36,523 bases of DNA from Pseudomonadota bacterium (lineage in GTDB: Bacteria > Pseudomonadota > Gammaproteobacteria > Burkholderiales > Rhodocyclaceae). The DNA is taken from positions 1 to 36,523 of the forward strand of contig JAKJFA010000019.1 in assembly GCA_022705135.1 (NCBI GenBank). Reading direction: 5' to 3'. Below, one piece after another: positions 4,555 to 36,523 of this stretch (position 1 is the first letter of the stretch; each line of letters starts with the position of its first letter). The position numbers and the translations under genes were made by a program. Below the pieces are notes generated by a model. The model made no database searches, was not told the DNA's origin, and saw nothing but the letters and a program-made list of their open reading frames with translations.

Positions 4555-4878
4555 ATGAATATCCAAATCAGCGGTCACCATGTCGAAGTGACGCCAGCGT
4601 TGCGACAGTATGTAGAAAACAAACTGGAGCCTGTGGTTCGTCACTTTGAACGGGTTACGGGCGTGACCGTGATTCTGTCGGTGGAAAAGTTGAAGCAGAA
4701 AGCAGAAGTGACGCTGCACGTTCCAGGCAAGGATGTCTTCGCCGAGGAAGTGAGTGATGATCTCTATGCCGGCATTGATCTGTTGTTCGACAAACTCGAT
4801 CGTCAAGTCCAGAAATACAAGCAGAAAATGCAGGATCACCACCGGGGCCAGAAAGCCAGTCAGCATGTAGCGGAATAG
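4555..4878 (+). CDS. hpf: Ribosome hibernation promoting factor HPF (sigma-54 modulation protein)
   Basis: Binds the 30S decoding region and promotes inactive 100S ribosome dimers in stationary or starved cells; the 'sigma-54 modulation protein' name reflects its position behind rpoN. The start is the ATG at 4555, preceded by a strong AAAGGAG at 4543-4549. It gives 107 residues beginning MNIQISGHHVEVTPALRQYV, the standard family start. The beta-alpha fold positions are visible (VTVILSVEKLKQKAEVTLHV, then DLYAGIDLLFDKLDRQVQKYK). It is a short HPF without the long C-terminal dimerisation domain. Confidence 0.95.
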   Translation: MNIQISGHHVEVTPALRQYVENKLEPVVRHFERVTGVTVILSVEKLKQKAEVTLHVPGKDVFAEEVSDDLYAGIDLLFDKLDRQVQKYKQKMQDHHRGQKASQHVAE

Positions 4879-22512: not shown

Positions 22513-22544
22513 GCAAAAGAAATGCATCTGAGGGGATGACTGTT

Positions 22545-25500
22545 GTGAAGTATTCTTTTGCCAGCTCAGCCAAAACGAGCCGGCCGGTGGCGCATGTTGT
22601 CCGCCGTCCAGCCGTGGTTGAGGCCATGAAGCAGAGCCAGGGCGCTTTATTCTGGCTGGTGGCCCCGGCGGGAAGCGGCAAGACCAGTCTTTGTCTTGAC
22701 TATCTGCAAGACAGGGGCTGTCCCTCCGCCTGGGTGCGGCTGGATGAGGCCGATCGTGATCCGGCCAGCTTTTTTTATTACCTGGAACAGGCCATTCTGT
22801 CCGGTGGAATTGCCAGCGACTGGCGGGCACCCACCTTTTTGCCCGAGCATTTGCAGGCTCCGGGCGCGTATACCCGTCTCTTCTTGCGTTCATTGGCACC
22901 GGCAATCGCGCCGGATGCCTGTCTGGTTCTCGACGATGCCTACAACTGTCAGGATGCGCCGTTTTTTGGCGAATTTCTCCGTATCGTGCAAGACGAGCTG
23001 CCCCCAGGCGTGCACATTCTCATCTGCAGCCGGGCCGCTCCGCCCGCTGTCTGCGCCAAGGCCCTGGCCTACGGTGCCATGGTCGAGATCGACAGCGCCC
23101 GCCTGTCCTTCTCCCAAGAGGAAACCGAACGTCTTCTGGCGGTGCTGGGGGTCGAAGATGCGGCCGGGAAGAGTGAAGCGGTATTCGAGGCCTCGCAAGG
23201 CTGGGCGGTGGCCATTGTCCTGATGGCGACCTGGTTGCAGCGCCGGCCCGAGGCTGCCCGCAATTTCGAGGAACACCTGCCCAATCTGGTGGGCAGTTTT
23301 CTGGCTACTGAGGTTTTTGAGGCATACAGCTCACCGGAGCGTGAACTCCTTCTGGCGATCTGCTGGCTGCCCTATTTTCGCGAGGATTGGGCGGCCAGTC
23401 TGTCGGGTGTTGAGACTGCCGGTGAAATCATTGCCAGGCTGGTGGCCAGCGGCCTGGTGTACGAGTATTCCGGCCGACAGTATTCATTACACCGGCTGTT
23501 CCGCACCTTTTTGCGTGAATGGGCCTGCATCAATGTAGCTGAGGAAAAACGGCTGCAATGGGTTGACCAAAGCGTTCTGCTCATGCTCTCGGACGATGAT
23601 GCCGACGTCGCGGTTGAATTGGCGCTCAAATATGGCCTGTTTGAGCGGGCGGCGGCGTTGATCGAGAACCAGTCGGCCGACCTCTTTGAGGAAGGCCGGC
23701 ACCAGACCCTGGAACGCTGGATCGAGTCCTTGCCGCAGCACTTGCATACCCCCTGGCATGATTACTGGCTGGGTTTGTCTCTTTTCACCAGGGATGCTGC
23801 GCGTTCGCGCGAGGCCTTGCTGCGGGCCTACGTCGCTTTTTCGGATTCGGACAGCCGGCAAAACCGTTATATGGCTTTGAGCTGGATCGTCTCGACCTAT
23901 GCGCTGAATAACCTCAAGAGCGATGTGCCTCTGGTGGAAGTTCTGTCTGAGTATATCGGGTCGGACGATTATGAGCGCCTAACGGATGACAACCTGCGGG
24001 CGCATCTGGCGCAGGCCGTTTTTTCAGGGCTGGCCTTGACTGATCCCGGGCATCCCGATTTCTGCCTGTGGCAGCAAAGAAGCGAGGATGCGCTCGCTCT
24101 CCCGGCCAGCCAGACGATCAAGATCCGGATTCTGGCCTGGCTTGCGATATTAAGCTTCTTGTCCGGGCGTTACCGGCGCATGGACGAACTGTGTGCCCTC
24201 CTCGACGGCCTTCCGGACTTGCAGGAGCTGTCGCCGCACGCCCAGGTTTTGGCGCAGTGTATCCGCGCTCTTGCGATGCTTGTTCATGCCGATCATGCGG
24301 CGCTTCCCCTGGCCTTGAAACAGGCACGCCGCCTTTCGACGGAAACAGGGATTATCAATCTGGACGGAATCAATGCCATGGCCTATGCGGTCAGCCGGGT
24401 GTTGGCGGGAGATGTTGAAGGAGGCGGTGCCATTCTGCAGGAGGCTCTGGCGGCCAATCACACGAAGCACTACTTCATGGGGGTGACGCTCGAACTCGCC
24501 CAGTCCTGGATTACTGCCTGGAAGGGAAGCGGGAGCAGCCTGCAGTTTGCCCACATCATTCGCCAGACCGGGCGCGATTCGGGTCTTATGATGCACGAAA
24601 TTTTGGGGCTGACCAGCGAATGCATTGCTGCGGCCTTACTTGATCTGCCCGACCTTGCAGCGCGCGTGGCCGAGTTGCGCCGGCTTGGCAATTCAGGTTC
24701 CATCCCTTACGCCGCCATCCATGCCGAGCTGCTTGATGCCTGGCGGCTGGCGCGCGCCGGTGACGAAGAGGCCGCCGTGCCCTTTCTTGAGACCGGTTTG
24801 AAGCTGTTGCGCCAACAAAGCGAGGGATTCCTTACCTCGGCAGTTCCACAAATCCTGCAACCGCTTTGTGCGCTGGCCTTGCGACGCAACATCGAACCCG
24901 ATACGGCGCGCGCGCTGATTCGGGTCTTCGGTTTACCGCCGCCGCCGGATTTCCCGGCGTATTGGACTTACCCTGTTCAGATCCGCTGCTTCGGTGGTTT
25001 TGAGCTCCTTATCGGTGGGCGCTCGGTGCCTTCACAGGGCAAATCGAAGCATCGCCAGATGGAATTGATCCGGATGATCGCGGCGCACGCGCCCACGCCC
25101 CTGGCCATGGGGCTGATTTCTGAAATTCTGTGGCCGGATTCTGAGGGCGACGCGGCGCACCACGCCCTCGAAACGACGCTTTCCCGCTTGCGTACGACCC
25201 TAGGCTACAACATCTTCATCGTTGAGCACGGTGCGGTCAGCCTCGATAGGCAGTTCTGCTGGCTGGACACCGTTGTGGCGCACGAAGCGATGCTGTTGTT
25301 GGAGAAACAAGTCAAGCAAAAGGACCGGGGAATGGCTGCCACGGCGCAGACGCTGCTTGACCTCTGCCGCGGCGAACTCCTGTTTGGCGAAGGCGCTGCC
25401 TGGATCGTGGCGCGTCGGGAGTACTGGAACAGCCGGATGACCCGGGCGTTTAGCGCAGTTGCCGCTGCCTTGGTGGCTTCCGGCGCCGCCATCGCCGCAG

Positions 25501-25712
25501 CGCGCCTGCTTGCGCGCGCGCTGGAGATCAACCCGCACAGCGAACTTGTGGTCCATGACTTGATGGACACCTGCCTGAAGGCGGATCTTCATGCTGAGGG
25601 GCTTGCGGCCTACCAGCGGTTTTGCCGGTTTTCCCTGCCCGTTCTGGGCATCGCCGTTCCGGAAAAAATCGAATTGCTGGCGCAGCGCTTGCGCAAGGGG
25701 GGCAATGAGTGA
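22545..25712 (+). CDS. Large STAND-ATPase transcriptional regulator with SARP/BTAD C-terminus
   Basis: A very large regulator of about 1055 residues. Near the N-terminus is a MalT-like STAND NTPase: Walker A APAGSGKT at 40-47 and Walker B VLDD at 128-131. A long helical TPR-like region fills about 350-800. The C-terminus is not a LuxR helix-turn-helix but a SARP-type winged helix (about 809-902: IRCFGGFELLIGG, ILWPD, LSRLRTTLGY) followed by a BTAD domain to the end. GTG 22545 lies 9 nt after AGGGG and is preferred; ATG 22536 abuts that site and would add three residues. The inducer and target genes are unknown, and no operon partner adjoins it. Confidence 0.9.
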   Translation: MKYSFASSAKTSRPVAHVVRRPAVVEAMKQSQGALFWLVAPAGSGKTSLCLDYLQDRGCPSAWVRLDEADRDPASFFYYLEQAILSGGIASDWRAPTFLPEHLQAPGAYTRLFLRSLAPAIAPDACLVLDDAYNCQDAPFFGEFLRIVQDELPPGVHILICSRAAPPAVCAKALAYGAMVEIDSARLSFSQEETERLLAVLGVEDAAGKSEAVFEASQGWAVAIVLMATWLQRRPEAARNFEEHLPNLVGSFLATEVFEAYSSPERELLLAICWLPYFREDWAASLSGVETAGEIIARLVASGLVYEYSGRQYSLHRLFRTFLREWACINVAEEKRLQWVDQSVLLMLSDDDADVAVELALKYGLFERAAALIENQSADLFEEGRHQTLERWIESLPQHLHTPWHDYWLGLSLFTRDAARSREALLRAYVAFSDSDSRQNRYMALSWIVSTYALNNLKSDVPLVEVLSEYIGSDDYERLTDDNLRAHLAQAVFSGLALTDPGHPDFCLWQQRSEDALALPASQTIKIRILAWLAILSFLSGRYRRMDELCALLDGLPDLQELSPHAQVLAQCIRALAMLVHADHAALPLALKQARRLSTETGIINLDGINAMAYAVSRVLAGDVEGGGAILQEALAANHTKHYFMGVTLELAQSWITAWKGSGSSLQFAHIIRQTGRDSGLMMHEILGLTSECIAAALLDLPDLAARVAELRRLGNSGSIPYAAIHAELLDAWRLARAGDEEAAVPFLETGLKLLRQQSEGFLTSAVPQILQPLCALALRRNIEPDTARALIRVFGLPPPPDFPAYWTYPVQIRCFGGFELLIGGRSVPSQGKSKHRQMELIRMIAAHAPTPLAMGLISEILWPDSEGDAAHHALETTLSRLRTTLGYNIFIVEHGAVSLDRQFCWLDTVVAHEAMLLLEKQVKQKDRGMAATAQTLLDLCRGELLFGEGAAWIVARREYWNSRMTRAFSAVAAALVASGAAIAAARLLARALEINPHSELVVHDLMDTCLKADLHAEGLAAYQRFCRFSLPVLGIAVPEKIELLAQRLRKGGNE

Positions 25713-25981: not shown

Positions 25982-26350
25982 TTAAAAAAAGAGGACGCTG
26001 CTCCAGACGGTCGTTACGTTGATGAGTGCGATGAGCACACCGGCGCTGCCGATATCCTTGGCGCGTTTCGACAGGCGGTGGTTTTCCAGCCCAATGCGGT
26101 CGATGGCGGCTTCCACGGCTGAATTGAGCAACTCGACGATGAGCACCAGCAGCACACTGCCGATCATCAGGGCGCGGCCGATGCCGGAGACCGGCCACAG
26201 GATCGCGGCCGGAATGAGTACGATGGCCAACCAGACTTCCTGGCGGAATGCGTCTTCGCAGGCATAGGCGGCCTTGAGGCCGGCGAAGGAGTAAAACAGG
26301 GCATTTTTCAGCCGGGTCAGGCCGGTTTTACCTTTGTATGGGCTTTCCAT
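25982..26350 (-). CDS. dgkA: Diacylglycerol kinase DgkA
   Basis: Small inner-membrane enzyme that phosphorylates diacylglycerol to phosphatidic acid with ATP, returning it to phospholipid synthesis. From ATG 26350 (MESPYKGKTGLTRLKNALFYS) it has 122 residues, matching the E. coli enzyme length. It has three membrane helices, the catalytic signature VELLNSAVEAAIDR at 72-85, and KRAKDIGSAGV at 95-105. It overlaps the end of the upstream glycosyltransferase gene by 34 bp, so the two are likely translationally coupled. In this context it would dispose of or recycle the diacylglycerol made by the PlcP-type enzyme. Confidence 0.95.
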   Translation of the reverse strand: MESPYKGKTGLTRLKNALFYSFAGLKAAYACEDAFRQEVWLAIVLIPAAILWPVSGIGRALMIGSVLLVLIVELLNSAVEAAIDRIGLENHRLSKRAKDIGSAGVLIALINVTTVWSSVLFF

Positions 26351-27507
26351 TCGCGCTGTTCCGATTGAACCAGGTTGCGGTAGAGCCGCGCCAGACGGGA
26401 TGCCATGGCGGCATCCGGCCACTCGGCGGCGTAGTGGCGTGCTTCGTCCGACAGGGCGGGCCAGCGTTCTGGATGCGCGAAAAAATCCGCTAGCGCCTGC
26501 CCGAATTCATCTGCATCATCCGGAGAAATGATGGCGCCACGGCGCGGTGCCAGGATGTCGACGGTGCCCATGGCGGCCAGTGCCATGACCGGCAGGCCAG
26601 AAGCCATCGCTTCCAGCAGGACCAATCCTTGCGTTTCGGTACGCGAAGCAAAGACGAAAAGATTGGCAGCGGCGTAGCAACCGGGCAGTTCTTGTTTGCG
26701 GTCGAGGTAGCCGAGAAATCGGACATTCTCGCCCAGACCCATTTGCTGGGCTTGTTTCTGTAAGTCACTGACGACCGGGCCATCGCCCGCGATGAGCAGC
26801 AGGGCTTGCGGATGTTGTGGGCGCGCCTTCTGCATGGCCCGCAGCAGCAGACCGATGTTTTTCTCATGCGCGATCCTGCCGACATAGAGTGCGATCGGGC
26901 GATTGGCGGCGATGTCGTGGCGGGCGCGGAACACGGCGCCATCGCCGGAGGAGAACTGTTGCAGCGGAATGCCGGTGGGCAGGATGTGCAACGGTGCTGT
27001 GACGCCATAATCTTCCAGGCGGTGTTTCATCGCTTGCGAGGGGACGACGATGGCGTCGAGCGCATTGCACTGGCGGCGCGACCAGGCGCGCGTCTGCCAG
27101 CGCAGCAGGCTGGCTGGAATGAAGGGCGCGTAATGTTGCAGATATTCCTCAAACAGCGTGTGGTAGGTGGTGACGATGGGGATGCCGAGCTGGCGCGCCG
27201 CCTTGAGGCCAGCGTAATGGGCGACGAATGGGGTGTGGGTGTGGATCAGGTCGCAGCCTTTGGCCGCCTTTAGCACCGCCCTGTGCATGGCGCGCCAGTG
27301 CAGAAGGCGGTCTTCCGGATCGAGCGGGATGACCCGGCCGGGAACGCGCGTGATCCAGTCTTCCGTGCCGTGTAGTTTGTCGTAAGCCGGGGCGATCAGG
27401 CGGACATCGACGCCCTCCTCCGGCAGGGTTTGGCGAAAAGTCTGGATTGAGGTCGATACCCCGTTGATGCGGGGAAAATAGACATCCGAAACCATCAGGA
27501 CACGCAT
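26317..27507 (-). CDS. GT4 family glycosyltransferase, probable Agt-like diacylglycerol glycosyltransferase
   Basis: A 396-residue GT-B fold retaining glycosyltransferase. ATG 27507 is preceded by a strong AAGGAGA site. The acceptor-side N-terminus is MRVLMVSDVYFPRINGVSTS, a motif shared by GT4 lipid glycosyltransferases (SqdX/PimB/MgdA-like). The nucleotide-sugar side includes LYVGRIAHEKNIGLLLRA and the EX7E motif at E291/E299. It overlaps the plcP-type gene by 13 bp and dgkA by 34 bp. That position points to diacylglycerol as acceptor, giving a mono- or glucuronosyl-diacylglycerol. This is inference; other lipid acceptors remain possible, and the sugar cannot be read. Confidence 0.82.
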   Translation of the reverse strand: MRVLMVSDVYFPRINGVSTSIQTFRQTLPEEGVDVRLIAPAYDKLHGTEDWITRVPGRVIPLDPEDRLLHWRAMHRAVLKAAKGCDLIHTHTPFVAHYAGLKAARQLGIPIVTTYHTLFEEYLQHYAPFIPASLLRWQTRAWSRRQCNALDAIVVPSQAMKHRLEDYGVTAPLHILPTGIPLQQFSSGDGAVFRARHDIAANRPIALYVGRIAHEKNIGLLLRAMQKARPQHPQALLLIAGDGPVVSDLQKQAQQMGLGENVRFLGYLDRKQELPGCYAAANLFVFASRTETQGLVLLEAMASGLPVMALAAMGTVDILAPRRGAIISPDDADEFGQALADFFAHPERWPALSDEARHYAAEWPDAAMASRLARLYRNLVQSEQREWKAHTKVKPA

Positions 27508-28286
27508 TTGGTTTCTCCTTGCCCGGGCAGGGCGGGAATGTTGCAGTTTGACATTGCTTCCCACTCGATGATTTCAAGGAGGCCGTCGAAGTGCTCAACG
27601 ATGGCGGTGCAGCTGTCGACCCAGTCGCCGCAGTTGACGTAGGTCAGGCCATCAATTTGCCGCTTGCTGGCGAAATGGATGTGACCGCAGATAACGCCGT
27701 CGAGTCCGCGCTGGCGAACGGCGCGAATGACCGCATTTTCAAAGCCATTGATGAACTCCAGGGCCTTTTTGACCTTACGCTTGGCAAACCCGGCCAGAGA
27801 CCAGTAGCCGGTGCGGCCGAGGCGGCGGCGTATCCAGGAAAGAAGGATATTGATACGGACGAGCCATGCGTAGGAAGCGTCGCCGAGCAGGGCGACCCAG
27901 CGGTGGTGCATCGTGACTTGATCGAATTCATCGCCGTGGATGAGCAGGTAGCGGCGGCCGTCGGCGGCGTCGTGCACCCACTCCGGATGGATTTCGATAT
28001 TGCCGAAGACGGTGCCGGAATAATCACGCAGGGCTTCGTCGTGGTTGCCGGGGATGAAAATGACGCGCTCGCCGTGACGGGCGCGACGGAGCACTTTCTG
28101 GACAACGGTGTTCTGGGCTTGTGTCCAGTGGATGCCGCGCTTCATCGCCCAGAAATCGACGATGTCACCGATCAGATAAAGGTGTTCCGCCGAATGCGCG
28201 CGCAGGAAGTCGAGAAGGGCGCTGGCTTGGCACGCGCGCGTACCGAGATGGATGTCTGAGAGAAAAATGCTGCGAACCCGAGGCAT
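27495..28286 (-). CDS. plcP: PlcP-type metallophosphoesterase (phospholipase C for lipid remodelling)
   Basis: A 263-residue calcineurin-like phosphoesterase. Metal ligands are visible: D11 and H13 in SDIHLG, GDIVD at 40-44, GNHD at 80-83, H118 in IHGDEFD, and GHIHF at 201-205. Automatic pipelines often call this group LpxH. True LpxH carries GNRDFL-type and GHTH motifs, whereas this protein has GNHDE, WTQAQNTVVQKVLRRAR and NCGDWVDSCTA, as I recall for Sinorhizobium PlcP. PlcP hydrolyses phosphatidylcholine/ethanolamine to diacylglycerol under phosphate starvation. It is the first gene of plcP-GT4-dgkA, behind a Pho-box-like repeat. There is no clear ribosome site before ATG 28286. Confidence 0.82.
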   Translation of the reverse strand: MPRVRSIFLSDIHLGTRACQASALLDFLRAHSAEHLYLIGDIVDFWAMKRGIHWTQAQNTVVQKVLRRARHGERVIFIPGNHDEALRDYSGTVFGNIEIHPEWVHDAADGRRYLLIHGDEFDQVTMHHRWVALLGDASYAWLVRINILLSWIRRRLGRTGYWSLAGFAKRKVKKALEFINGFENAVIRAVRQRGLDGVICGHIHFASKRQIDGLTYVNCGDWVDSCTAIVEHFDGLLEIIEWEAMSNCNIPALPGQGETKCVS

Positions 28287-28292
28287 GGCGCC

Positions 28293-28347
28293 ACATTAGC
28301 GGCCAACTATGAACGCAATGTGACCGGCAAATGACGATTTGGTGAAA
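28293..28347 (-). promoter_or_regulatory. Pho-box-like tandem repeats and -10 of the plcP operon
   Basis: On the plus strand TGAAC, TGACC, TGACG and TGAAA start at 28310, 28321, 28332 and 28343, exactly 11 bp apart. Read on the minus strand these are four PhoB half-site-like units sharing TCA (TTTCA, CGTCA, GGTCA, GTTCA). The last unit CGTTCAT is followed by 10 nt and TAATGT (28298-28293), the spacing seen in E. coli phoA and pstS promoters. The predicted start of transcription falls near 28286, the start codon itself. Confidence 0.68.
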
Positions 28348-28425
28348 GGGAAAGGGAGATGGCGGGTTTATTGCAAGCACAGGAAGCTATCTCCGTGTTG
28401 CACGGCAGGGGGTGCCCGCAAGAAG

Positions 28426-29232
28426 TCAGGCAGCGACGAGTTCTTGGCTGATTTCAGGAGTACGGTTCGTCAGTCCCAGGGGCGCTTCGCCGGGTGAGAG
28501 GATGACCTCAGCAATCGCTGCATGGGCAGCTTGGGCTACGGTTCGACGGTCTTCGCTGTGCAGACCAAGGGCGGGCAGGCTTTGCAAGCGTGCTTTTAGG
28601 TGGGGGCGCGCAGCGATGCTTTTCAGGCATTCGCCAAAAGAGATCTGACCATCGTAGCGCGGCGCCAAGCTGCGCTTTCCACCCGGTTCCCAGTAAGAAA
28701 TCGCCAAGGGAACGACGGGTCTGCCGGCGGCAAGCGCCGGCTGAATGAGCGCGGCATGAAAGGACAAGAGGCGCAGACCGTCGGTGGTGGTGCCTTCGGG
28801 GAAAACCACGACATGTTTGCCCTGATTCAGTTTTTGGGCGATTTCCCTATTGATCAGGCTGGCATGGCCGTGGCTGCCGCGGCGCAGAAATACGGTTTCA
28901 TTGACGGCCGCCAGCCAGCCGATCAGTGGCCAGTGGCGGACCTCAGCCTTGGAAACAAACGCGCAGGGCAACACGGCGTTGATGACGAAAATATCGAGCC
29001 AGGAAATATGGTTGGCGACGATGAGCGAACCCGGACGGACATGACCGAGGTTGGCATCGGCTTGTATTCCCAGAATAAGGAGCAGGGTTTTTGACCAGCG
29101 TTGTTTCTGGCGGGCACGTTGCAGGTCGTTGAGGAAGTGGAAAAGAAAGACGACCGTGGCGGTCCCGCTCAGAATGAGGAGGCCGACACGGATCAACCGC
29201 AAGGTGCGGACAAGGGGATTATTGTTTTTCAT
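28426..29232 (-). CDS. Lysophospholipid/lyso-ornithine-lipid acyltransferase (PlsC/OlsA family)
   Basis: A 268-residue membrane-bound O-acyltransferase. It has an N-terminal hydrophobic helix at about 13-33, the catalytic NHISWLD (NHx4D) at 74-80, the acceptor-binding FPEGTTTDG at 144-152 and PVVPLAISY at 173-181. The family includes PlsC (1-acylglycerol-3-phosphate to phosphatidate) and OlsA (lyso-ornithine lipid to ornithine lipid). Position 33 bp after an OlsB-like gene favours OlsA, but sequence alone does not separate them. The 139 bp after its stop carry the Pho-like repeats of the next unit. Confidence 0.88.
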   Translation of the reverse strand: MKNNNPLVRTLRLIRVGLLILSGTATVVFLFHFLNDLQRARQKQRWSKTLLLILGIQADANLGHVRPGSLIVANHISWLDIFVINAVLPCAFVSKAEVRHWPLIGWLAAVNETVFLRRGSHGHASLINREIAQKLNQGKHVVVFPEGTTTDGLRLLSFHAALIQPALAAGRPVVPLAISYWEPGGKRSLAPRYDGQISFGECLKSIAARPHLKARLQSLPALGLHSEDRRTVAQAAHAAIAEVILSPGEAPLGLTNRTPEISQELVAA

Positions 29233-29265
29233 TCGGAGTGTGGTTACTCCTTGTTTTTCTTGGAA

Positions 29266-30021
29266 TTAGCCCAGGAAGTGCCTGGCGTAACGGCCTTCGA
29301 GTCGCGCCATGTGCATCAGGATGGGCAGGTCGGCGGTGTTGAAATCGGGGTCCCAGGCGGGTTCGCCGCAGACATAGGCGCCGGCGCGCAGGTAGCCCTT
29401 GATTAGTGGTGGCGTTTCGGCGGGCTCGTTCTGGCGCAGGCTGGCCATGGGCAGTGGGCAGCGCGGGAAAACGCGGTATTCGATGGGTCCGAGATATTCC
29501 TGCGTCAGCCGGTGATAAAGGCTGGCGGCATGATGGCCGCCGTCTGCCATGCTGACGGAAGCGCAACCGGTCAAATATTCGTAGCCGCCGGCGCGCATGT
29601 AATGCGCCAGTCCTGCCCACAGGAGGGCGATGGTGGCCCCGTTGCGATAGTCCGGATGCACGCAGGAACGGCCGATTTCAACCAGGCGCGGGCGCAGGTG
29701 TTGCAGCCGCGTGAGGTCGAATTCGTTCTCGGAGTAATAGCCGATATTACGGGCTTTTTCGGGCGAGAGAATGCGGTAGGTTCCGACCACTTCGCTGTTG
29801 TCAGCATCGCGCACGATCAGGTGTTCGCAGAAGGGGTCGTAGATGTCCTGATCGATGCCAGGAATGCGGCTGGGTAACTTTGCGCCCAGTTCGCCCGCGA
29901 AAATCTGGTAGCGCAGGCGCTGGGCTTCGACGATCTCATCGGCGTGCCGGGCGAGGCAGACGGAAAGTTTGGGGCGGGCCTTGCGCGGGGCGGCATGTTG
30001 GCAAATATGGGTTTGTTCCAT
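29266..30021 (-). CDS. olsB: L-ornithine N(alpha)-acyltransferase OlsB-like (GNAT)
   Basis: Catalyses the first step of ornithine lipid synthesis: transfer of a 3-hydroxyacyl group from acyl carrier protein to ornithine. It has 251 residues. The family signature LVEIGRSCVHPDYRNGATI is at 113-131, followed by LLWAGLAHYM and YLTGCASVSM; the early RYQIFAGELGA is also typical of OlsB and related hemolysin-like acyltransferases. ATG 30021 is preceded by GAGGAG on the minus strand, which lies in the 3' arm of a leader hairpin. It is the first gene of the leftward cluster, behind a Pho-box-like promoter. Confidence in OlsB rather than another acyl-ACP GNAT comes partly from the adjacent PlsC/OlsA gene. 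Confidence 0.87.
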   Translation of the reverse strand: MEQTHICQHAAPRKARPKLSVCLARHADEIVEAQRLRYQIFAGELGAKLPSRIPGIDQDIYDPFCEHLIVRDADNSEVVGTYRILSPEKARNIGYYSENEFDLTRLQHLRPRLVEIGRSCVHPDYRNGATIALLWAGLAHYMRAGGYEYLTGCASVSMADGGHHAASLYHRLTQEYLGPIEYRVFPRCPLPMASLRQNEPAETPPLIKGYLRAGAYVCGEPAWDPDFNTADLPILMHMARLEGRYARHFLG

Positions 30022-30052: not shown

Positions 30053-30096
30053 AATGTAGTCAGGAAAGGTGACCGTTTTGTTACGGCTGTTTGGCG
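30053..30096 (-). promoter_or_regulatory. Pho-box-like repeats and -10 of olsB-plsC
   Basis: Plus-strand TGACC (30070), TTACG (30081) and TGGCG (30092) are 11 bp apart. On the minus strand the proximal unit CGGTCAC (30075-30069) is followed by exactly 10 nt and then TACATT (30058-30053), the PhoB promoter geometry. The predicted transcript starts about 25 nt before the olsB ATG. Confidence 0.65.
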
Positions 30097-30220: not shown

Positions 30221-31696
30221 GTGGCTATCGAGACGGAACTCAAACTTTCCCTGCCGACGCGGTGGGCGCCGCAGGTAAGCAAGCACCCGTTGTTGGCGGG
30301 TTTGCCGGCGCAGGCTTGCCGCCTGAGCAGCACCTATTACGATACGCCGGATCAGTTTTTGCTGGCGCATGGCGTGGCTGTCCGTTTCCGCAGAAAGCGC
30401 GGCCGCTGGCTGATGACAGTCAAACGTGACGATCCTGCCGGTGGCGCGCTGACCCAACGCCAGGAGTGGGAATATCCGGCCTGCCCCGGCCGGTTTGATT
30501 TCTCCCTGGTCGGATGCGCGAAACTGCGGCGGCTGTTGCAGGGGTGCAGCGCGCGGCTGATGGCGATTTTCAGCACCCATTTCCTGCGGCGGAGCTGGTT
30601 GGTCGAGCGCCATGGTGCGCGGATCGAACTGGCGCTCGATCGTGGCCATGTCGACGCAAACGGGCGGCGCCTGCCCCTTTGCGAAGTTGAGCTGGAGCTG
30701 CTTTCCGGGGAACCGGCCGCCCTGTTTGCGCTGGCGCTGGAACTGCAGGCAGAGCTTCCCTTGAGGCCGGCGCTGGCCAGCAAGGCGGAACGCGGTTATC
30801 GCCTCTCCCATGGTGTACCGGCGCAGCCCTGCAAGGCCAGGTCCTCCGGTCTGCAGGCGGACATGACGCCGCTTGCCGCCTTTCGTCATCTGGCGCTCGA
30901 TTGCCTGTGGCAGTTGCAGCGCAATGAAAATGCCGGGCGCTGGCGGGAAGACCCGGAATTCACGCATCAGGCGCGGGTGGCGCTCAGGCGTTTGCGTTCC
31001 CTGCTCAGGTTGTTTGCGCCTGTTCTGCCGCAAGGGTTCGCAGAGGAATATGGCAAGGCCTGGAAAGTGTATTCAGATGTGCTCGGTGCGGCGCGTAACT
31101 GGGATGTGTTGCTGGCGGAAACCCTGCCCCCGGTCAGTGAATCTCTTCCTGGAGACAGGGGGCTGGTGCACTGCGGCAGAAATGCGCTGGCCCAGGCCGG
31201 CAAGGCGCACCGGCAGGTCGAGAACGTGTTTGCCAGCGAGGGCTATGCCCGGCTTGTCCTGGTGTTTGTCGCGCGGCTGTTCGCGCTGGAAGAGCAGGAG
31301 TCAGCGCCGTCGCTGGGCGACTTTTTCATCGGGCGCGTCGGCAAGCTGGAGCGCAGGGCGCGTCTGCAGGCGCGTTTTGCCGAAGCGCCGTCCGCTGCGG
31401 ACTGGCATCGCCTGCGCATTGCGCTCAAGAAGCTGCGATACGCTCTTGAATTCATGGCGCCGCTGCTGGCGCGCAAGCGTTTCAAAGGCTATCAGGCCGC
31501 ATTGCTGCCCCTGCTCGAAGGATTGGGACGGCTCAACGATCTGGATACGGCCGCCCGTCTGGTGCATGATCACATGGGGGAGCGGCATGGCCGGTTCCTG
31601 CTGGGCTGGCTGGCGGGGCAGTCGGCGATGTTGCAGCTGAGCCGGTTGCCGCCAGACCTGGAAAACTGGCTGGCCCGGAAGCCGCCCTGGAAATAG
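30221..31696 (+). CDS. CYTH-CHAD domain protein (inorganic triphosphatase / polyphosphate-associated)
   Basis: A 491-residue fusion. The N-terminal CYTH domain starts with the ETELKL (ExExK) signature at 4-9 and has basic strands such as AVRFRRKRGRWLMTVKR, as in triphosphate-tunnel enzymes like YgiF. A C-terminal CHAD domain from about 215 is helical and rich in conserved histidine/arginine (FTHQARVALRRLRSLLR, WHRLRIALKKLRYALEF). CHAD domains are known to bind polyphosphate. The start is GTG 30221 with GGAGG at 30209-30213. Its place next to pst genes supports a role in phosphate or polyphosphate metabolism. Confidence 0.9.
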   Translation: MAIETELKLSLPTRWAPQVSKHPLLAGLPAQACRLSSTYYDTPDQFLLAHGVAVRFRRKRGRWLMTVKRDDPAGGALTQRQEWEYPACPGRFDFSLVGCAKLRRLLQGCSARLMAIFSTHFLRRSWLVERHGARIELALDRGHVDANGRRLPLCEVELELLSGEPAALFALALELQAELPLRPALASKAERGYRLSHGVPAQPCKARSSGLQADMTPLAAFRHLALDCLWQLQRNENAGRWREDPEFTHQARVALRRLRSLLRLFAPVLPQGFAEEYGKAWKVYSDVLGAARNWDVLLAETLPPVSESLPGDRGLVHCGRNALAQAGKAHRQVENVFASEGYARLVLVFVARLFALEEQESAPSLGDFFIGRVGKLERRARLQARFAEAPSAADWHRLRIALKKLRYALEFMAPLLARKRFKGYQAALLPLLEGLGRLNDLDTAARLVHDHMGERHGRFLLGWLAGQSAMLQLSRLPPDLENWLARKPPWK

Positions 31697-32288: not shown

Positions 32289-33275
32289 ATGAACAGATTC
32301 AGCAAATGGACTGCCTTGGCCGGGGTTGGCCTTCTTTCCGTTAATATCGCCCATGCCCAGATCGTCAAGATTGATGGTTCTTCCACCGTGTATCCGATTA
32401 CCGAGGCGGTGGCCGAGGAGTTCCAGAAGGCTAAGAAGAATGCCATCAAGGTTACCGTGGGGATTTCCGGTACGGGCGGCGGTTTCAAGAAGTTCTGCCG
32501 CGGCGAGACCGATATTTCCGATGCCTCACGCCCGATTTCCAAGAAGGAAATGGAGGCCTGCAAGGAAGCCGGCATCCAGTATTATGAAATGCCGGTGGCG
32601 TTCGATGCGCTGACCGTTGTCATCAACCCTAAGAACGATTTCGTCAAGTCCATGACCCCGGCCGAGTTGAAAAAGATGTGGGAGCCGGCCGCTACCGGCA
32701 AGGTGATGAGCTGGAAGGACGTCAATCCCGCCTTCCCGGATGTGCCGCTGAAGCTGTTTGCACCGGGCGCCGATTCGGGCACTTTCGATTATTTCACCGA
32801 AGCCATCAATGGCAAGTCCAAGGCTTCGCGCACCGACTTTACAGCCTCCGAGGACGATAACGTGCTGGTGCAGGGCGTCTCGCGCGACAAGGGCGGTTTG
32901 GCTTATTTCGGCTTTGCCTACTATGTCGAAAACCAGAAAAAGCTGAAGGCCGTTCCCATCTTCAACGGCAAGGAAGCCGTGCTGCCGTCGCCGCAAACGG
33001 TGGAAAATGGCACCTATGCGCCGCTCTCCCGCCCCATCTTCATCTATGTCAATGCCAAGTCGCTTGAGAAGCCGGAAGTCAAGGCGTTCGTCGAGTACTA
33101 CATGAAGCACAGTCCTGAGCTGGTCAGGGAAGTGAAGTACGTACCGCTGCCGGCCAAGGCCTATACGCTGAACATGGAGCATGTGGCCAAGAAGAAGATC
33201 GGCACGGTGTATGGCGGCGAAGAGGCCATCGGCGTCAAAATTGACGAGTTGATGGCGCGTGAAGCCAAGTACTGA
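32289..33275 (+). CDS. pstS: Periplasmic phosphate-binding protein PstS
   Basis: High-affinity phosphate receptor of the Pst ABC importer. It has 328 residues with a clear signal peptide ([20 protein letters not shown], likely cleaved after Ala23, AHA|Q). Phosphate-contact segments are visible: GSSTVYP at 30-36, SRPISKKE and [15 protein letters not shown] at 32276-32280 precedes the ATG. It is the first gene of pstS-C-A-B-phoU, behind a Pho box, and is separated from pstC by a 71-bp gap with a stem-loop. Confidence 0.97.
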
Positions 33276-33297
33276 TCTGTTTTGATTGCTGTGCCAG

Positions 33298-33331
33298 ACT
33301 CCGGTTCCGCTCGCGCGGGCCGGAGTTCTTC
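33298..33331 (+). terminator. Stem-loop between pstS and pstC (attenuator or mRNA stabiliser)
   Basis: ACTCCGG (33298-33304) pairs with CCGGAGT (33320-33326). An inner CCGC/GCGG helix (33307-33310 with 33315-33318) continues the stem past a small bulge, and TTCTT follows. Such structures commonly let pstS accumulate above the membrane subunits. Confidence 0.65.
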
Positions 33332-33346
33332 GGATAGAGTCTGGGA

Positions 33347-34300
33347 ATGACTGAAAACAGTGTGACCGATAATTCATGGGGCGGGCCCGCCGGGCGGGTG
33401 AGCCCGCGTCTGGCCAAAAACGCCCTGCGCAACTGGCGCGAGCGTCTGATCGAGGGCCTGCTGTTCTGCATGGCAGCGGTTTCCGTGTTGACGACGCTGG
33501 GGATTGTCTATGTGCTGGTCAAGGAGTCGATCATTTTCTTCCAGCATGTCCGGATCGTCGATTTTCTGACCGACACGCGCTGGACGCCATTGTTTGACGA
33601 TGCCCACTACGGCATCCTGGTGCTGATTTCCGGCACCCTGGTGTCTTCGGCGGTAGCGCTGGCGGTCGCCATCCCGGTCGGTACCATCATCGCCATTTAT
33701 CTTTCTGAATTTGCCACGGCGCGGGTGCGCGAAGTGGCCAAACCCATTCTGGAAGTGTTGGGGGGCATTCCCACCATCGTCTTCGGTTATTTCGCCTTGA
33801 TGGTGGTGACGCCCCTGTTGCAGAGGGTATTGCCGGAGTTGCCGGGGTTTTCCTTGTTGTCTGCCGGTCTGGTCATGGGGGTGATGATCGTGCCCTATGT
33901 GTCGTCGCTGTCCGAGGATGCCATGCGCGCCGTGCCGATGAGTCTGCGCGAAGGCGCTTATGCCATGGGCTCGACCCGCTTGCAGGTAGCATTGAAGGTG
34001 GTCGTGCCGGCCGCGACTTCCGGGCTGGCGGCTTCCTATATCCTGGGCATTTCGCGGGCGGTAGGGGAGACCATGATCGTGGCCGTGGCGGCAGGCATGC
34101 AGCCCAATCTGACCTTCAATCCGATGGAGCCGGCAGCGACCATCACTTCCTTCATTGTTCAGGTGGCGCTGGGCGATTTGCCGCATGGTTCCATCGGCTA
34201 CCTCACCATTTTTGCCGCTGGCCTCACCCTGTTGCTGATCACGCTGACCCTCAACGTCATTGGCTTGTGGATGCGCAAAAAGTATCGGGAGCATTACTGA
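33347..34300 (+). CDS. pstC: Phosphate ABC transporter permease PstC
   Basis: Membrane subunit of the phosphate importer. It has 317 residues and six transmembrane helices, the first at about 36-58. The EAA-type cytoplasmic loop that contacts PstB is EGAYAMGSTRLQVALKVVVP at about 206-225, followed by GISRAVGETMIV. The hydrophilic N-terminal 30 residues are typical of PstC. One base separates its TGA from the pstA start, so pstC and pstA are coupled. Confidence 0.97.
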   Translation: MTENSVTDNSWGGPAGRVSPRLAKNALRNWRERLIEGLLFCMAAVSVLTTLGIVYVLVKESIIFFQHVRIVDFLTDTRWTPLFDDAHYGILVLISGTLVSSAVALAVAIPVGTIIAIYLSEFATARVREVAKPILEVLGGIPTIVFGYFALMVVTPLLQRVLPELPGFSLLSAGLVMGVMIVPYVSSLSEDAMRAVPMSLREGAYAMGSTRLQVALKVVVPAATSGLAASYILGISRAVGETMIVAVAAGMQPNLTFNPMEPAATITSFIVQVALGDLPHGSIGYLTIFAAGLTLLLITLTLNVIGLWMRKKYREHY

Positions 34301-34301
34301 G

Positions 34302-35222
34302 ATGGTGCAACAGGATAAAACCGCGGACATTCATGCCGTCATCCGGCGCGGCAAGCGCTGGGATTATCTTTTCGCGGCGATCGGCTTGATCTGTCTGGCC
34401 TTCGGCTTGCTGACTGTGCTGGTTCTGGTTGGCAAGATGGGGCTTGAGGGGCTGGATCGGCTGAGCCTCGATTTTTTCACCAGCTACCCGTCACGACGCG
34501 CCGCCAATGCCGGCATCCTTTCGGCCTGGGTCGGTTCAGTGCTGGTGATGCTGGTCACGGCCTTTGCCGCGGTGCCGCTCGGTGTTGGCGCCGGCGTCTA
34601 TCTGGAAGAGTACGCCAAGAAGAACTGGGTGACCGACATCATCGAAATCAACATCACCAATCTGGCGGCCGTGCCTTCCATCGTCTATGGCTTGCTGGCG
34701 CTGGGCATCTTCGTCTACCAGTTCGGCTTCGGCGGCAGCATCTTATCGGCCGGGCTGACGCTGGCGCTGCTGATCCTGCCCATTGTGATTGTCGCCACGC
34801 GCGAAGCGATCCGGGCTATTCCCGGCGCCATGCGCGAAGGCTCGATGGCGCTGGGGGCAACTAAATGGCAGACCGTGCGTTATCACATCCTGCCCTATTC
34901 CATGCCCGGCATCCTGACCGGCATCATCATCGGGCTGGCGCGCGCCATCGGCGAGACGGCGCCGATCATCACCATCGGTGCGCTGACCTTCATCGCCTTC
35001 CTGCCGCCGCTGCCACTGGTCGAGGGCGCTGGTCTGTTCGACTGGGTGATGTCCCCTTTTACCGTGATGCCGATCCAGATGTTCAACTGGACTTCGCGGC
35101 CCGAGGAGGCCTTTCAGATCAATGCCGGCGCGGCCGGTTTTGTGCTGGTGGTGATGACGCTGGGCATGAATGCCCTGGCCATCTGGCTGCGTTATCGCCT
35201 GCGCAAGAATATCAAGTGGTAA
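34302..35222 (+). CDS. pstA: Phosphate ABC transporter permease PstA
   Basis: Second membrane subunit of the Pst importer. The ATG at 34302, one base after the pstC stop, gives 306 residues (MVQQDKTADIHAVIRRGKRW); an earlier in-frame start lies inside pstC and was rejected. It has six membrane helices, the EAA-type loop EGSMALGATKWQTVRYHILP and GLARAIGETAPIITIGAL, a strongly conserved PstA block. It ends 15 bp before the pstB ATG. Confidence 0.97.
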   Translation: MVQQDKTADIHAVIRRGKRWDYLFAAIGLICLAFGLLTVLVLVGKMGLEGLDRLSLDFFTSYPSRRAANAGILSAWVGSVLVMLVTAFAAVPLGVGAGVYLEEYAKKNWVTDIIEINITNLAAVPSIVYGLLALGIFVYQFGFGGSILSAGLTLALLILPIVIVATREAIRAIPGAMREGSMALGATKWQTVRYHILPYSMPGILTGIIIGLARAIGETAPIITIGALTFIAFLPPLPLVEGAGLFDWVMSPFTVMPIQMFNWTSRPEEAFQINAGAAGFVLVVMTLGMNALAIWLRYRLRKNIKW

Positions 35223-35237
35223 AAAGGACCCTTGCCA

Positions 35238-36020
<783 letters not shown>

Positions 36021-36033
36021 GTCTGGAGAAACC

Positions 36034-36523
36034 ATGAACGAACAAGTACACCTTTCCCGGCAATTTGATGCGGAACTTGAAAAACTGCGCTCCCAATTGC
36101 TGCAAATGGGCGGTCTGGTCGAAGCGCAGATCGCCACTGCCGCAGCGGCATATGACCAGAACGACCTGTCGCTGGCAACACGGGTGATCGACGGCGACAG
36201 GCAGGTTAACGCCCTGCAGAAAAATATCGATAACGACTGCATCCATGTCATTGCCAAACGGCAGCCGACGGCTTCTGATTTGCGCTTGGTCATGAGCGTC
36301 AGCAAAATTGCCACCGATCTGGAACGCATTGGTGACGAGGCCAAGAAGGTGGCCAAGGGGGTGCGCCGCATACAAGAGCGCGGCCAACGACTGATCGAGT
36401 CCGAGACGGCCAATATCCGGCATCTGGCGAGTGTTGCCAGCGCTTTGCTGCGCCGGGCGCTGGATGCCTTTGCCCGGCTCGATACCGAGCAGGCGACCGC
36501 AGTGATTCGCGAAGATAAGGAAC
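36034..36523 (+). CDS. phoU: Phosphate signalling protein PhoU (N-terminal part, runs off window)
   Basis: Negative regulator linking the Pst transporter to PhoR, needed to switch off the PHO response when phosphate is ample. The frame is open from ATG 36034 (GGAGA upstream) to the window end, 163 codons. It starts MNEQVHLSRQFDAELEKLRS and includes the first metal-binding helical repeat with DLRLVMSVSKIATDLERIGDEAKKVA (key residues E/D x3 D pattern). It is 13 bp after pstB. The second half of the protein is outside the window. Confidence 0.97.
   Translation, partial: MNEQVHLSRQFDAELEKLRSQLLQMGGLVEAQIATAAAAYDQNDLSLATRVIDGDRQVNALQKNIDNDCIHVIAKRQPTASDLRLVMSVSKIATDLERIGDEAKKVAKGVRRIQERGQRLIESETANIRHLASVASALLRRALDAFARLDTEQATAVIREDKE

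What the first reader, a model, noticed from the sequence alone, without database searches (positions are those of the whole stretch)
25982..30021. Compact phosphorus-free-lipid locus: olsB, plsC/olsA, plcP, GT4, dgkA in one direction
Seen: five leftward genes, with ordered overlaps of 13 and 34 bp in the last three. Known: OlsB plus OlsA make ornithine lipids; PlcP plus Agt turn phospholipid into diacylglycerol and glycolipid under phosphate starvation; DgkA returns diacylglycerol to phosphatidate. Inference: the locus unites both phosphate-saving lipid routes and a recycling valve in one island beside pstSCAB-phoU. I do not recall this exact five-gene combination being described.
Basis: partly seen in the sequence, partly recalled or inferred. 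Interest (0 to 1): 0.85.

Follow-up and report, generated by a model that had tools for sequence, protein, structure and literature searches.

The report
Phosphate-sparing membrane lipid gene island
A bacterium keeps side by side, apparently behind two phosphate-starvation switches, genes to make phosphorus-free ornithine lipids and to turn phospholipids into sugar lipids, but the sugar-adding enzyme is not the usual one and looks like an unstudied relative.

Summary
They look like two units, not one: olsBA, and plcP-GT4-dgkA behind a 139-bp gap with its own run of four Pho-box half-sites. The phosphate-saving reading is well supported by Pho-box-like sites before olsB, plcP and pstS, by neighbouring pstSCAB-phoU, by a second dgkA elsewhere in the genome, and by recurrent clustering in relatives. 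One identification fails: the GT4 is not Agt. In other families an Agt-type GT4 follows plcP in 23 of 40 loci sampled; the window protein lies in a separate clade (GT-A, about 30% identical) and differs at three sites where published Agt mutants lose activity. In 199 family genomes GT-A is in 125 and Agt type in 6; GT-A adjoins plcP on one strand in 50. GT-A is probably a diacylglycerol glycosyltransferase that took Agt's place; its chemistry is untested. The exact five-gene order was not seen elsewhere among the genomes examined, but the same genes cluster in other orders, several beside pstS. Phosphate-responsive PlcP, DagK and OlsAB are already published for a pseudomonad. Verdict: new variant of a known kind, moderately interesting.

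The parts
29266..30021 (-). olsB-like N-acyltransferase (GNAT, Acetyltransf_5), probably ornithine N-acyltransferase
   Evidence: Pfam PF13444 E 8e-36; NCBIfam OlsB models are the best hits, 168 and 157 bits, below their cut-offs of 350 and 320; one match in the genome
28426..29232 (-). olsA-like lysolipid O-acyltransferase, 33 bp after olsB
   Evidence: Pfam PF01553; NCBIfam OlsA models best, 128 and 124 bits, cut-offs 300; NHISWLD motif visible; the olsBA pair is kept in two same-genus genomes (L192, L193)
27495..28286 (-). plcP-like intracellular phospholipase C (metallophosphoesterase)
   Evidence: 46-74% identical to eight plcP-position proteins of relatives, 24% to the genome's own LpxH-like protein (L002:284-1003); metal motifs invariant in 9 of 9 rows; family in 104 of 249 phylum genomes at E<=1e-35
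26317..27507 (-). GT-A glycosyltransferase (GT4); overlaps plcP by 13 bp; not Agt
25982..26350 (-). dgkA, one of two in the genome; overlaps GT4 by 34 bp
   Evidence: Pfam PF01219 E 5e-31; other copy on contig C22, 50% identical; 69-82% to DgkA of seven island loci
30069..30086 (-). putative Pho box upstream of olsB (CCGTAAC-AAAA-CGGTCAC)
   Evidence: a similar site at a similar place in same-genus L192
28309..28348 (-). putative Pho box upstream of plcP: four half-sites at 11-bp spacing
   Evidence: same arrangement at the same distance from the start in L033
32219..32236 (+). putative Pho box upstream of pstS
   Evidence: highest-scoring 18-mer of the window
32289..36522 (+). pstS, pstC, pstA, pstB, phoU (phoU cut by the window end): neighbouring phosphate transport genes

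Best explanation
A Pho-regulated membrane-lipid remodelling island. In phosphate starvation PhoB (inferred) would bind the tandem boxes before olsB and plcP. OlsB and OlsA make ornithine lipid. PlcP cleaves phospholipids to diacylglycerol and a phosphoalcohol. GT-A, whose gene overlaps plcP, puts a sugar on the diacylglycerol (most likely glucose, giving a monoglucosyl-diacylglycerol), in place of the usual Agt. The dedicated DgkA returns surplus diacylglycerol to phosphatidate, so that PlcP does not flood the membrane with diacylglycerol. Shown here: genes, families, overlaps, promoter-like sites, clade of the GT, frequent association with plcP. Inferred: every enzymatic step, the sugar, the regulation in the cell.
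For: Families and order. An LpxH-like gene elsewhere, so plcP is not the lipid A enzyme. Of 9 sites scoring 11 or more in both strands of the window, 5 lie just upstream of pstS, olsB and plcP on the right strand; three of the five are registers of the one plcP run. Upstream of plcP, 62 of 125 loci beat their own shuffles at P<=0.05, against 14 of 128 upstream of GT-A. Of 199 family genomes, 136 have PlcP, 124 a full-strength GT-A, 116 both; within 6 kb in 77, adjacent on one strand in 50. In same-genus L034 the string is pstCAB-phoU-phoB-phoR-plcP-GTA-dgkA-GTB on one strand. Two DgkA copies, the island one forming its own set. GT-A covers NCBIfam's monoglucosyl-DAG synthase model nearly end to end, 140 bits.
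Against: GT-A is far below that model's cut-off (400 bits) and as near to GlcNAc-phosphatidylglycerol synthase (145 bits, cut-off 480), so sugar and acceptor are open. GT-A occurs without PlcP in 8 of the 124 genomes (one is a contig-end fragment) and with none of six lipid partners within 6 kb in 18 of 80 named loci, some cut by contig ends; 39 of 116 genomes with both do not have them within 6 kb, by contig breaks or truly. DgkA makes a phosphorus lipid in a phosphate-saving state. By the plain half-site count the window's olsB stretch reached only 9, against a shuffle mean of 8.0 for its set. OlsB and OlsA fall below the equivalog cut-offs. The closest relative G003 has olsBA on another contig and other genes upstream of plcP, so the window's junction is recent or, in a draft assembly, could be an error.
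Confidence: 0.72

Rival explanations
1. The GT4 is an ordinary Agt and the locus is an ordinary plcP-agt operon with olsBA beside it.
For: Same slot directly after plcP; GT4 domains; overlapping genes.
Against: Agt-type GT-C genes fill that slot in 23 of 40 other loci and in 8 of 27 order-level loci and are about 30% identical to the window GT4; GT-A and GT-C are separate clades, each at 100% SH-aLRT in a quick tree that warns of long branches; GT-A has TETQG in 13 of 13 rows where GT-C has T-Asp-T in 15 of 15; in the studied Agt, D256E lost more than 90% of activity, F258A nearly all, R163A all (PMC8231724, passages).
Confidence: 0.08
2. GT-A sugars a phospholipid (as GpgS makes GlcNAc-phosphatidylglycerol) or another acceptor, and DgkA recycles diacylglycerol from PlcP alone.
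For: The GpgS model is the top NCBIfam hit (145 bits); a DgkA beside the GT would fit diacylglycerol not being its acceptor.
Against: Below the cut-off of 480; no deacetylase or flippase gene among the neighbours scanned, unlike gpgSDF (PMC12713373, abstract and passages); frequent link with plcP, whose product is diacylglycerol (77 of 116).
Confidence: 0.15
3. Chance or assembly neighbourhood: olsBA and plcP-GT4-dgkA lie together only by accident in this draft genome.
For: The exact order was not found in another genome examined; G003 has them on separate contigs.
Against: olsB lies within 8 kb of plcP or GT-A in at least 32 of 199 family genomes, the window's included, in several arrangements; full sets beside pstS in L041, L046, L194, L196, of two genera.
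Confidence: 0.07

Closest known systems
plcP-agt operons (type 2 of Sebastian et al.; SAR11, Erythrobacter; also Pseudomonas, methanotrophs)
   Same: plcP followed at once by a GT4 gene, with Pho boxes reported (PMC4796936 section 13; PMC8528852 section 15; PMC9239053 passages)
   Different: The GT4 belongs to another clade; a dgkA overlaps it; olsBA is adjacent
Phosphate-responsive lipid set of Pseudomonas putida BIRD-1 (PlcP, DagK, OlsA, OlsB)
   Same: The same kinds of enzyme rise together at low phosphate (PMC5082522 passages)
   Different: Locus tags there (olsA/olsB 0974/0975, plcP 1390) show that olsAB and plcP lie apart; here they are adjacent, with a GT
Pseudomonas aeruginosa Agt2 (PA0842)
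   Same: A second Pho-regulated GT4 (PMC8528852 section 15). GT-B of the relatives' islands groups with a second GT4 of the f25 genomes, probably pseudomonads. That this GT is PA0842 is my recollection of gene order, not a test
   Different: The window genome has no GT-B; GT-A is another clade
Alpha-monoglucosyldiacylglycerol synthases (NF049988)
   Same: Nearly end-to-end profile match of GT-A, 140 bits
   Different: Far below the cut-off of 400 bits

Membership tests
Agt (GTcp group of GT4) | Motifs GRVAXEKN and FPSXTDTFG with catalytic Asp256 | tested here: not met
   Window has GRIAHEKN and FASRTETQG; Glu in 13 of 13 GT-A rows, Asp in 15 of 15 GT-C rows; motifs from PMC8231724 section 5
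Agt (GTcp group of GT4) | Phe258 and Arg163, needed for activity in GTcp | tested here: not met
   Gln at the Phe place; Thr (TGIP) at the place of the Arg in RGVD. The Arg place was matched by my alignment, since the GTcp sequence was not at hand; one GT-C row (L172) has Lys there and Tyr at the Phe place
Agt (GTcp group of GT4) | Falls in the Agt clade | tested here: not met
   Separate clade of 10 rows at 100% SH-aLRT. Named Agt sequences were not at hand; GT-C is taken as Agt type by motif and by place after plcP
Alpha-monoglucosyldiacylglycerol synthase | NF049988 cut-off 400 bits | tested here: not met
   140.5 bits, positions 1-393 of 398
GlcNAc-phosphatidylglycerol synthase GpgS | NF053787 cut-off 480 bits | tested here: not met
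   145.1 bits
PlcP | Metallophosphoesterase of the plcP-position family, distinct from LpxH | tested here: met
   E 2e-138 to the A3 profile, of which it is a row; own LpxH-like protein separate at 24%
PlcP | Phospholipase C activity | not testable with these tools
   needs enzyme assay
OlsB/OlsA ornithine lipid pathway | NCBIfam equivalog cut-offs | tested here: inconclusive
   Best-matching named families but below cut-offs
OlsB/OlsA ornithine lipid pathway | Ornithine rather than another amino acid as substrate | not testable with these tools
   GlsB (glycine) model scores 24 bits against 168 for OlsB, which favours ornithine
DgkA | DAGK_prokar above Pfam cut-off | tested here: met
   107 bits, cut-off 22.3
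Pho regulon | Tandem Pho-box half-sites at 11-bp spacing upstream | tested here: met
   plcP strongly, pstS clearly, olsB more weakly
Pho regulon | PhoB-dependent expression | not testable with these tools
   needs expression data

The most novel reading that the evidence does not exclude
GT-A is an unrecognised clade of lipid glycosyltransferase that displaced Agt in Rhodocyclales and some other lineages, makes a glycolipid set different from the MGDG/GADG pair, and works as a unit with a dedicated DgkA that splits the PlcP-made diacylglycerol between glycolipid and phosphatidate, while ornithine lipid genes were drawn into the same pst/pho neighbourhood several times independently.
Probability: 0.3. 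Interest if true: 0.65.

Novelty: new variant of a known kind. Interest (0 to 1): 0.5.

Why it matters
Phosphorus-free lipids let bacteria grow where phosphate is scarce. Surveys that use agt or the plcP-agt pair as the marker would miss GT-A: in this family only 6 of 199 genomes have an Agt-type GT at the threshold used, while 125 have GT-A. The named relatives include Dechloromonas, Azonexus, Zoogloea and Thauera, some in culture, so their lipids at low phosphate are a direct, testable question.

Tried and rejected
LpxH reading of plcP: rejected, the genome has an LpxH-like gene of its own. DgkA as the lone housekeeping copy: rejected, a second copy exists. Agt reading of the GT4: rejected. 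One five-gene operon: disfavoured by the promoter-like gap. GT-B elsewhere in the genome: not found (the genome is 90% complete). The GT-A to dgkA/GT-B spacer of six Azonexaceae-type loci: no sense-strand gene recognised, left. Rfam and tRNA scans of the window: nothing. Fold of PlcP: 9 rows gave a mediocre model (pLDDT 74.7), nearest LpxH structures, which adds little. Fold of GT-A: good model (88.8), nearest MshA, GlgM, BshA and PimB', which tells fold but not sugar.
Full report
What is there. The ORF list gives five leftward genes between 25982 and 30021. Pfam places all five in the expected families above cut-off. NCBIfam's best names are OlsB (168 bits, cut-off 350), OlsA (128, cut-off 300), LpxH for the phosphoesterase (53, cut-off 190) and, for the GT4, GlcNAc-phosphatidylglycerol synthase and monoglucosyl-diacylglycerol synthase, all below cut-off. 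To the right lie a CYTH-CHAD gene, a sixA-like gene, pstS, two permease genes, pstB and the start of phoU.

PlcP, not LpxH. The genome is a 2.2 Mb draft in 146 contigs, 90% complete. It has a separate LpxH-like gene on contig C105 (L002:284-1003), 24% identical, while eight plcP-position proteins of relatives are 46-74% identical and share invariant metal motifs. The family is in 104 of 249 phylum genomes at E<=1e-35.

Regulation. Counting matches to CTGTCAT pairs at 11-bp spacing, with C allowed as seventh letter, 9 sites in both strands of 36.5 kb score 11 or more. Five lie just upstream of pstS, olsB and plcP on the right strand (three of them are registers of the one plcP run); the other four are at 4591, 5725, 19935 and 28745. 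The plcP site is a run of four half-sites, kept in same-genus L033 at the same distance from the start; the olsB site is kept in L192. By the plain count, stretches upstream of plcP beat their shuffles at P<=0.05 in 13 of 28, 30 of 57 and 19 of 40 loci; upstream of GT-A, as control, in 2 of 23, 11 of 80 and 1 of 25; of olsB in 2 of 8 and 7 of 13; of dgkA in 0 of 9 and 13 of 31. Some genomes are in two sets (L033 and L070, for one). In that plain count the window's olsB stretch reached only 9, against a shuffle mean of 8.0, so its box rests mainly on conservation. olsBA and plcP-GT4-dgkA therefore look like two units.

The glycosyltransferase. Relatives hold three GT4 kinds near plcP: GT-A (the window's), GT-B and GT-C. 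In 40 plcP loci of other families, chosen by hand from 107 places, GT-C stands directly after plcP in 23, GT-A is near plcP in 3 (L154, L157, L188), and 14 have neither. Among 27 family and order loci, GT-C follows plcP in 8 of the order-level ones. GT-C carries the GRVAxEKN and FPSxTDTFG pattern of the biochemically studied Agt group (PMC8231724 section 5) and is about 30% identical to GT-A. A quick tree of 42 rows separates GT-A (10 rows, 100% SH-aLRT), GT-C (16 rows, 100%) and GT-B with a second GT4 of the f25 genomes (86%); it warns of three long rows, one of which meets the GT-A branch. GT-A has Glu where Agt has Asp256, Gln where it has Phe258, and Thr where my alignment puts Arg163; in that paper D256E lost over 90% of activity, F258A nearly all and R163A all. 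Glu is normal in other GT4 enzymes, so this marks another group, not a dead enzyme. The nearest profile with a diacylglycerol product is monoglucosyl-DAG synthase, 140 bits over positions 1-393 of 398. The genome shows no GT-B and no GT-C at E<=1e-70, so GT-A is its only close candidate. The fold model is nearest MshA and other GT4 structures.

Distribution. In 199 family genomes: GT-A 125, GT-C 6 (4 strong), PlcP 136, OlsB 158. Leaving out one weak GT-A genome, 116 have both PlcP and GT-A, 20 PlcP alone, 8 GT-A alone; the two lie within 6 kb in 77 and adjacent on one strand in 50. Of the 4 strong GT-C genomes, all have PlcP and 2 also have GT-A, so replacement is not absolute. In the 80 best named GT-A loci, PlcP is within 6 kb in 58, GT-B in 45, DgkA in 31, OlsB in 12, and 18 have none of the six lipid partners, some because contigs end. 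G155, listed only as same phylum, has plcP-GTA-dgkA (L154) and its GT-A (L199) sits inside the family's clade, which suggests transfer or misassignment.

How special is the order. I saw olsB-olsA-plcP-GTA-dgkA in that order in no other genome, among the 27, 80 and 40 loci mapped and the family survey, where OlsB rows were picked by eye from a capped list. The nearest is L131, olsB-plcP-GTA-GTB on one strand, without olsA or dgkA seen. The set olsA-olsB-GTA-dgkA-GTB-plcP lies beside pstS in L041, L046, L194 and L196, of two genera, and olsB, plcP, GTB, dgkA and GTA in another order beside pstS in L197. In same-genus L034, plcP-GTA-dgkA-GTB follows pstCAB-phoU-phoB-phoR on the same strand. In the closest relative G003 the olsBA pair is on another contig (L192) and plcP has other genes upstream. 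The gene set is a recurring neighbourhood and the exact string looks local.

DgkA. The genome has a second DgkA, 50% identical, on contig C22; the island DgkA is 69-82% identical to DgkA of seven other island loci. That points to a dedicated copy. Its role as a drain for diacylglycerol is inference.

What is known. Sebastian et al. describe six plcP contexts, the commonest neighbour being agt, some with other GTs or btaAB (PMC4796936 section 13). P. aeruginosa has Agt1 and Agt2 (PMC8528852 section 15). Methanotrophs have plcP-agt, with OlsBA in some (PMC9239053 passages and section 9). In A. tumefaciens agt is atu2297 and plcP atu1649, so they lie apart (PMC3972451 passages). PlcP, DagK, OlsA and OlsB rise at low phosphate in P. 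putida BIRD-1; the text calls their expression PHO-dependent, and its list of proteins lost in the mutant names PlcP and OlsAB (PMC5082522 passages). I found no description of GT-A, of this gene order or of low-phosphate lipids in these genera in the open-access searches, of which I read listings and passages only; most subscription papers were not searchable.

Noticed in passing
window 30221-31696 (+): A CYTH-CHAD gene (recalled: CHAD proteins bind polyphosphate) stands between the lipid genes and pstS, and a CHAD gene also lies beside plcP islands in L041, L046, L195, L196 and near GT-A in 5 of 80 named loci.
   Followed up: partly
L154 / L199 (genome G155): A genome listed only as 'same phylum' carries plcP-GTA-dgkA with GT-A nested in the family's clade: transfer between classes or a misplaced draft genome.
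   Followed up: partly
L034 (genome G002): pstCAB-phoU-phoB-phoR-plcP-GTA-dgkA-GTB in one direction; its PstC is only 30% identical to the window's, so this is another kind of pst operon.
   Followed up: yes
L100, L117, L127, L129, L138, L139, L146, L148, L149: GT-A genes with none of the lipid partners within 6 kb, in Thauera, Aromatoleum and Steroidobacter-type records; their role there is open.
   Followed up: no
L189: An Agt-type GT (GT-C) after plcP is also followed by a dgkA, so the dgkA link is not tied to GT-A.
   Followed up: no
window 22536-25712 (+): A 1058-aa MalT-like protein with a BTAD domain ends 270 bp from dgkA, convergent with it; a 63% identical gene lies beside the island of L033.
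   Followed up: no
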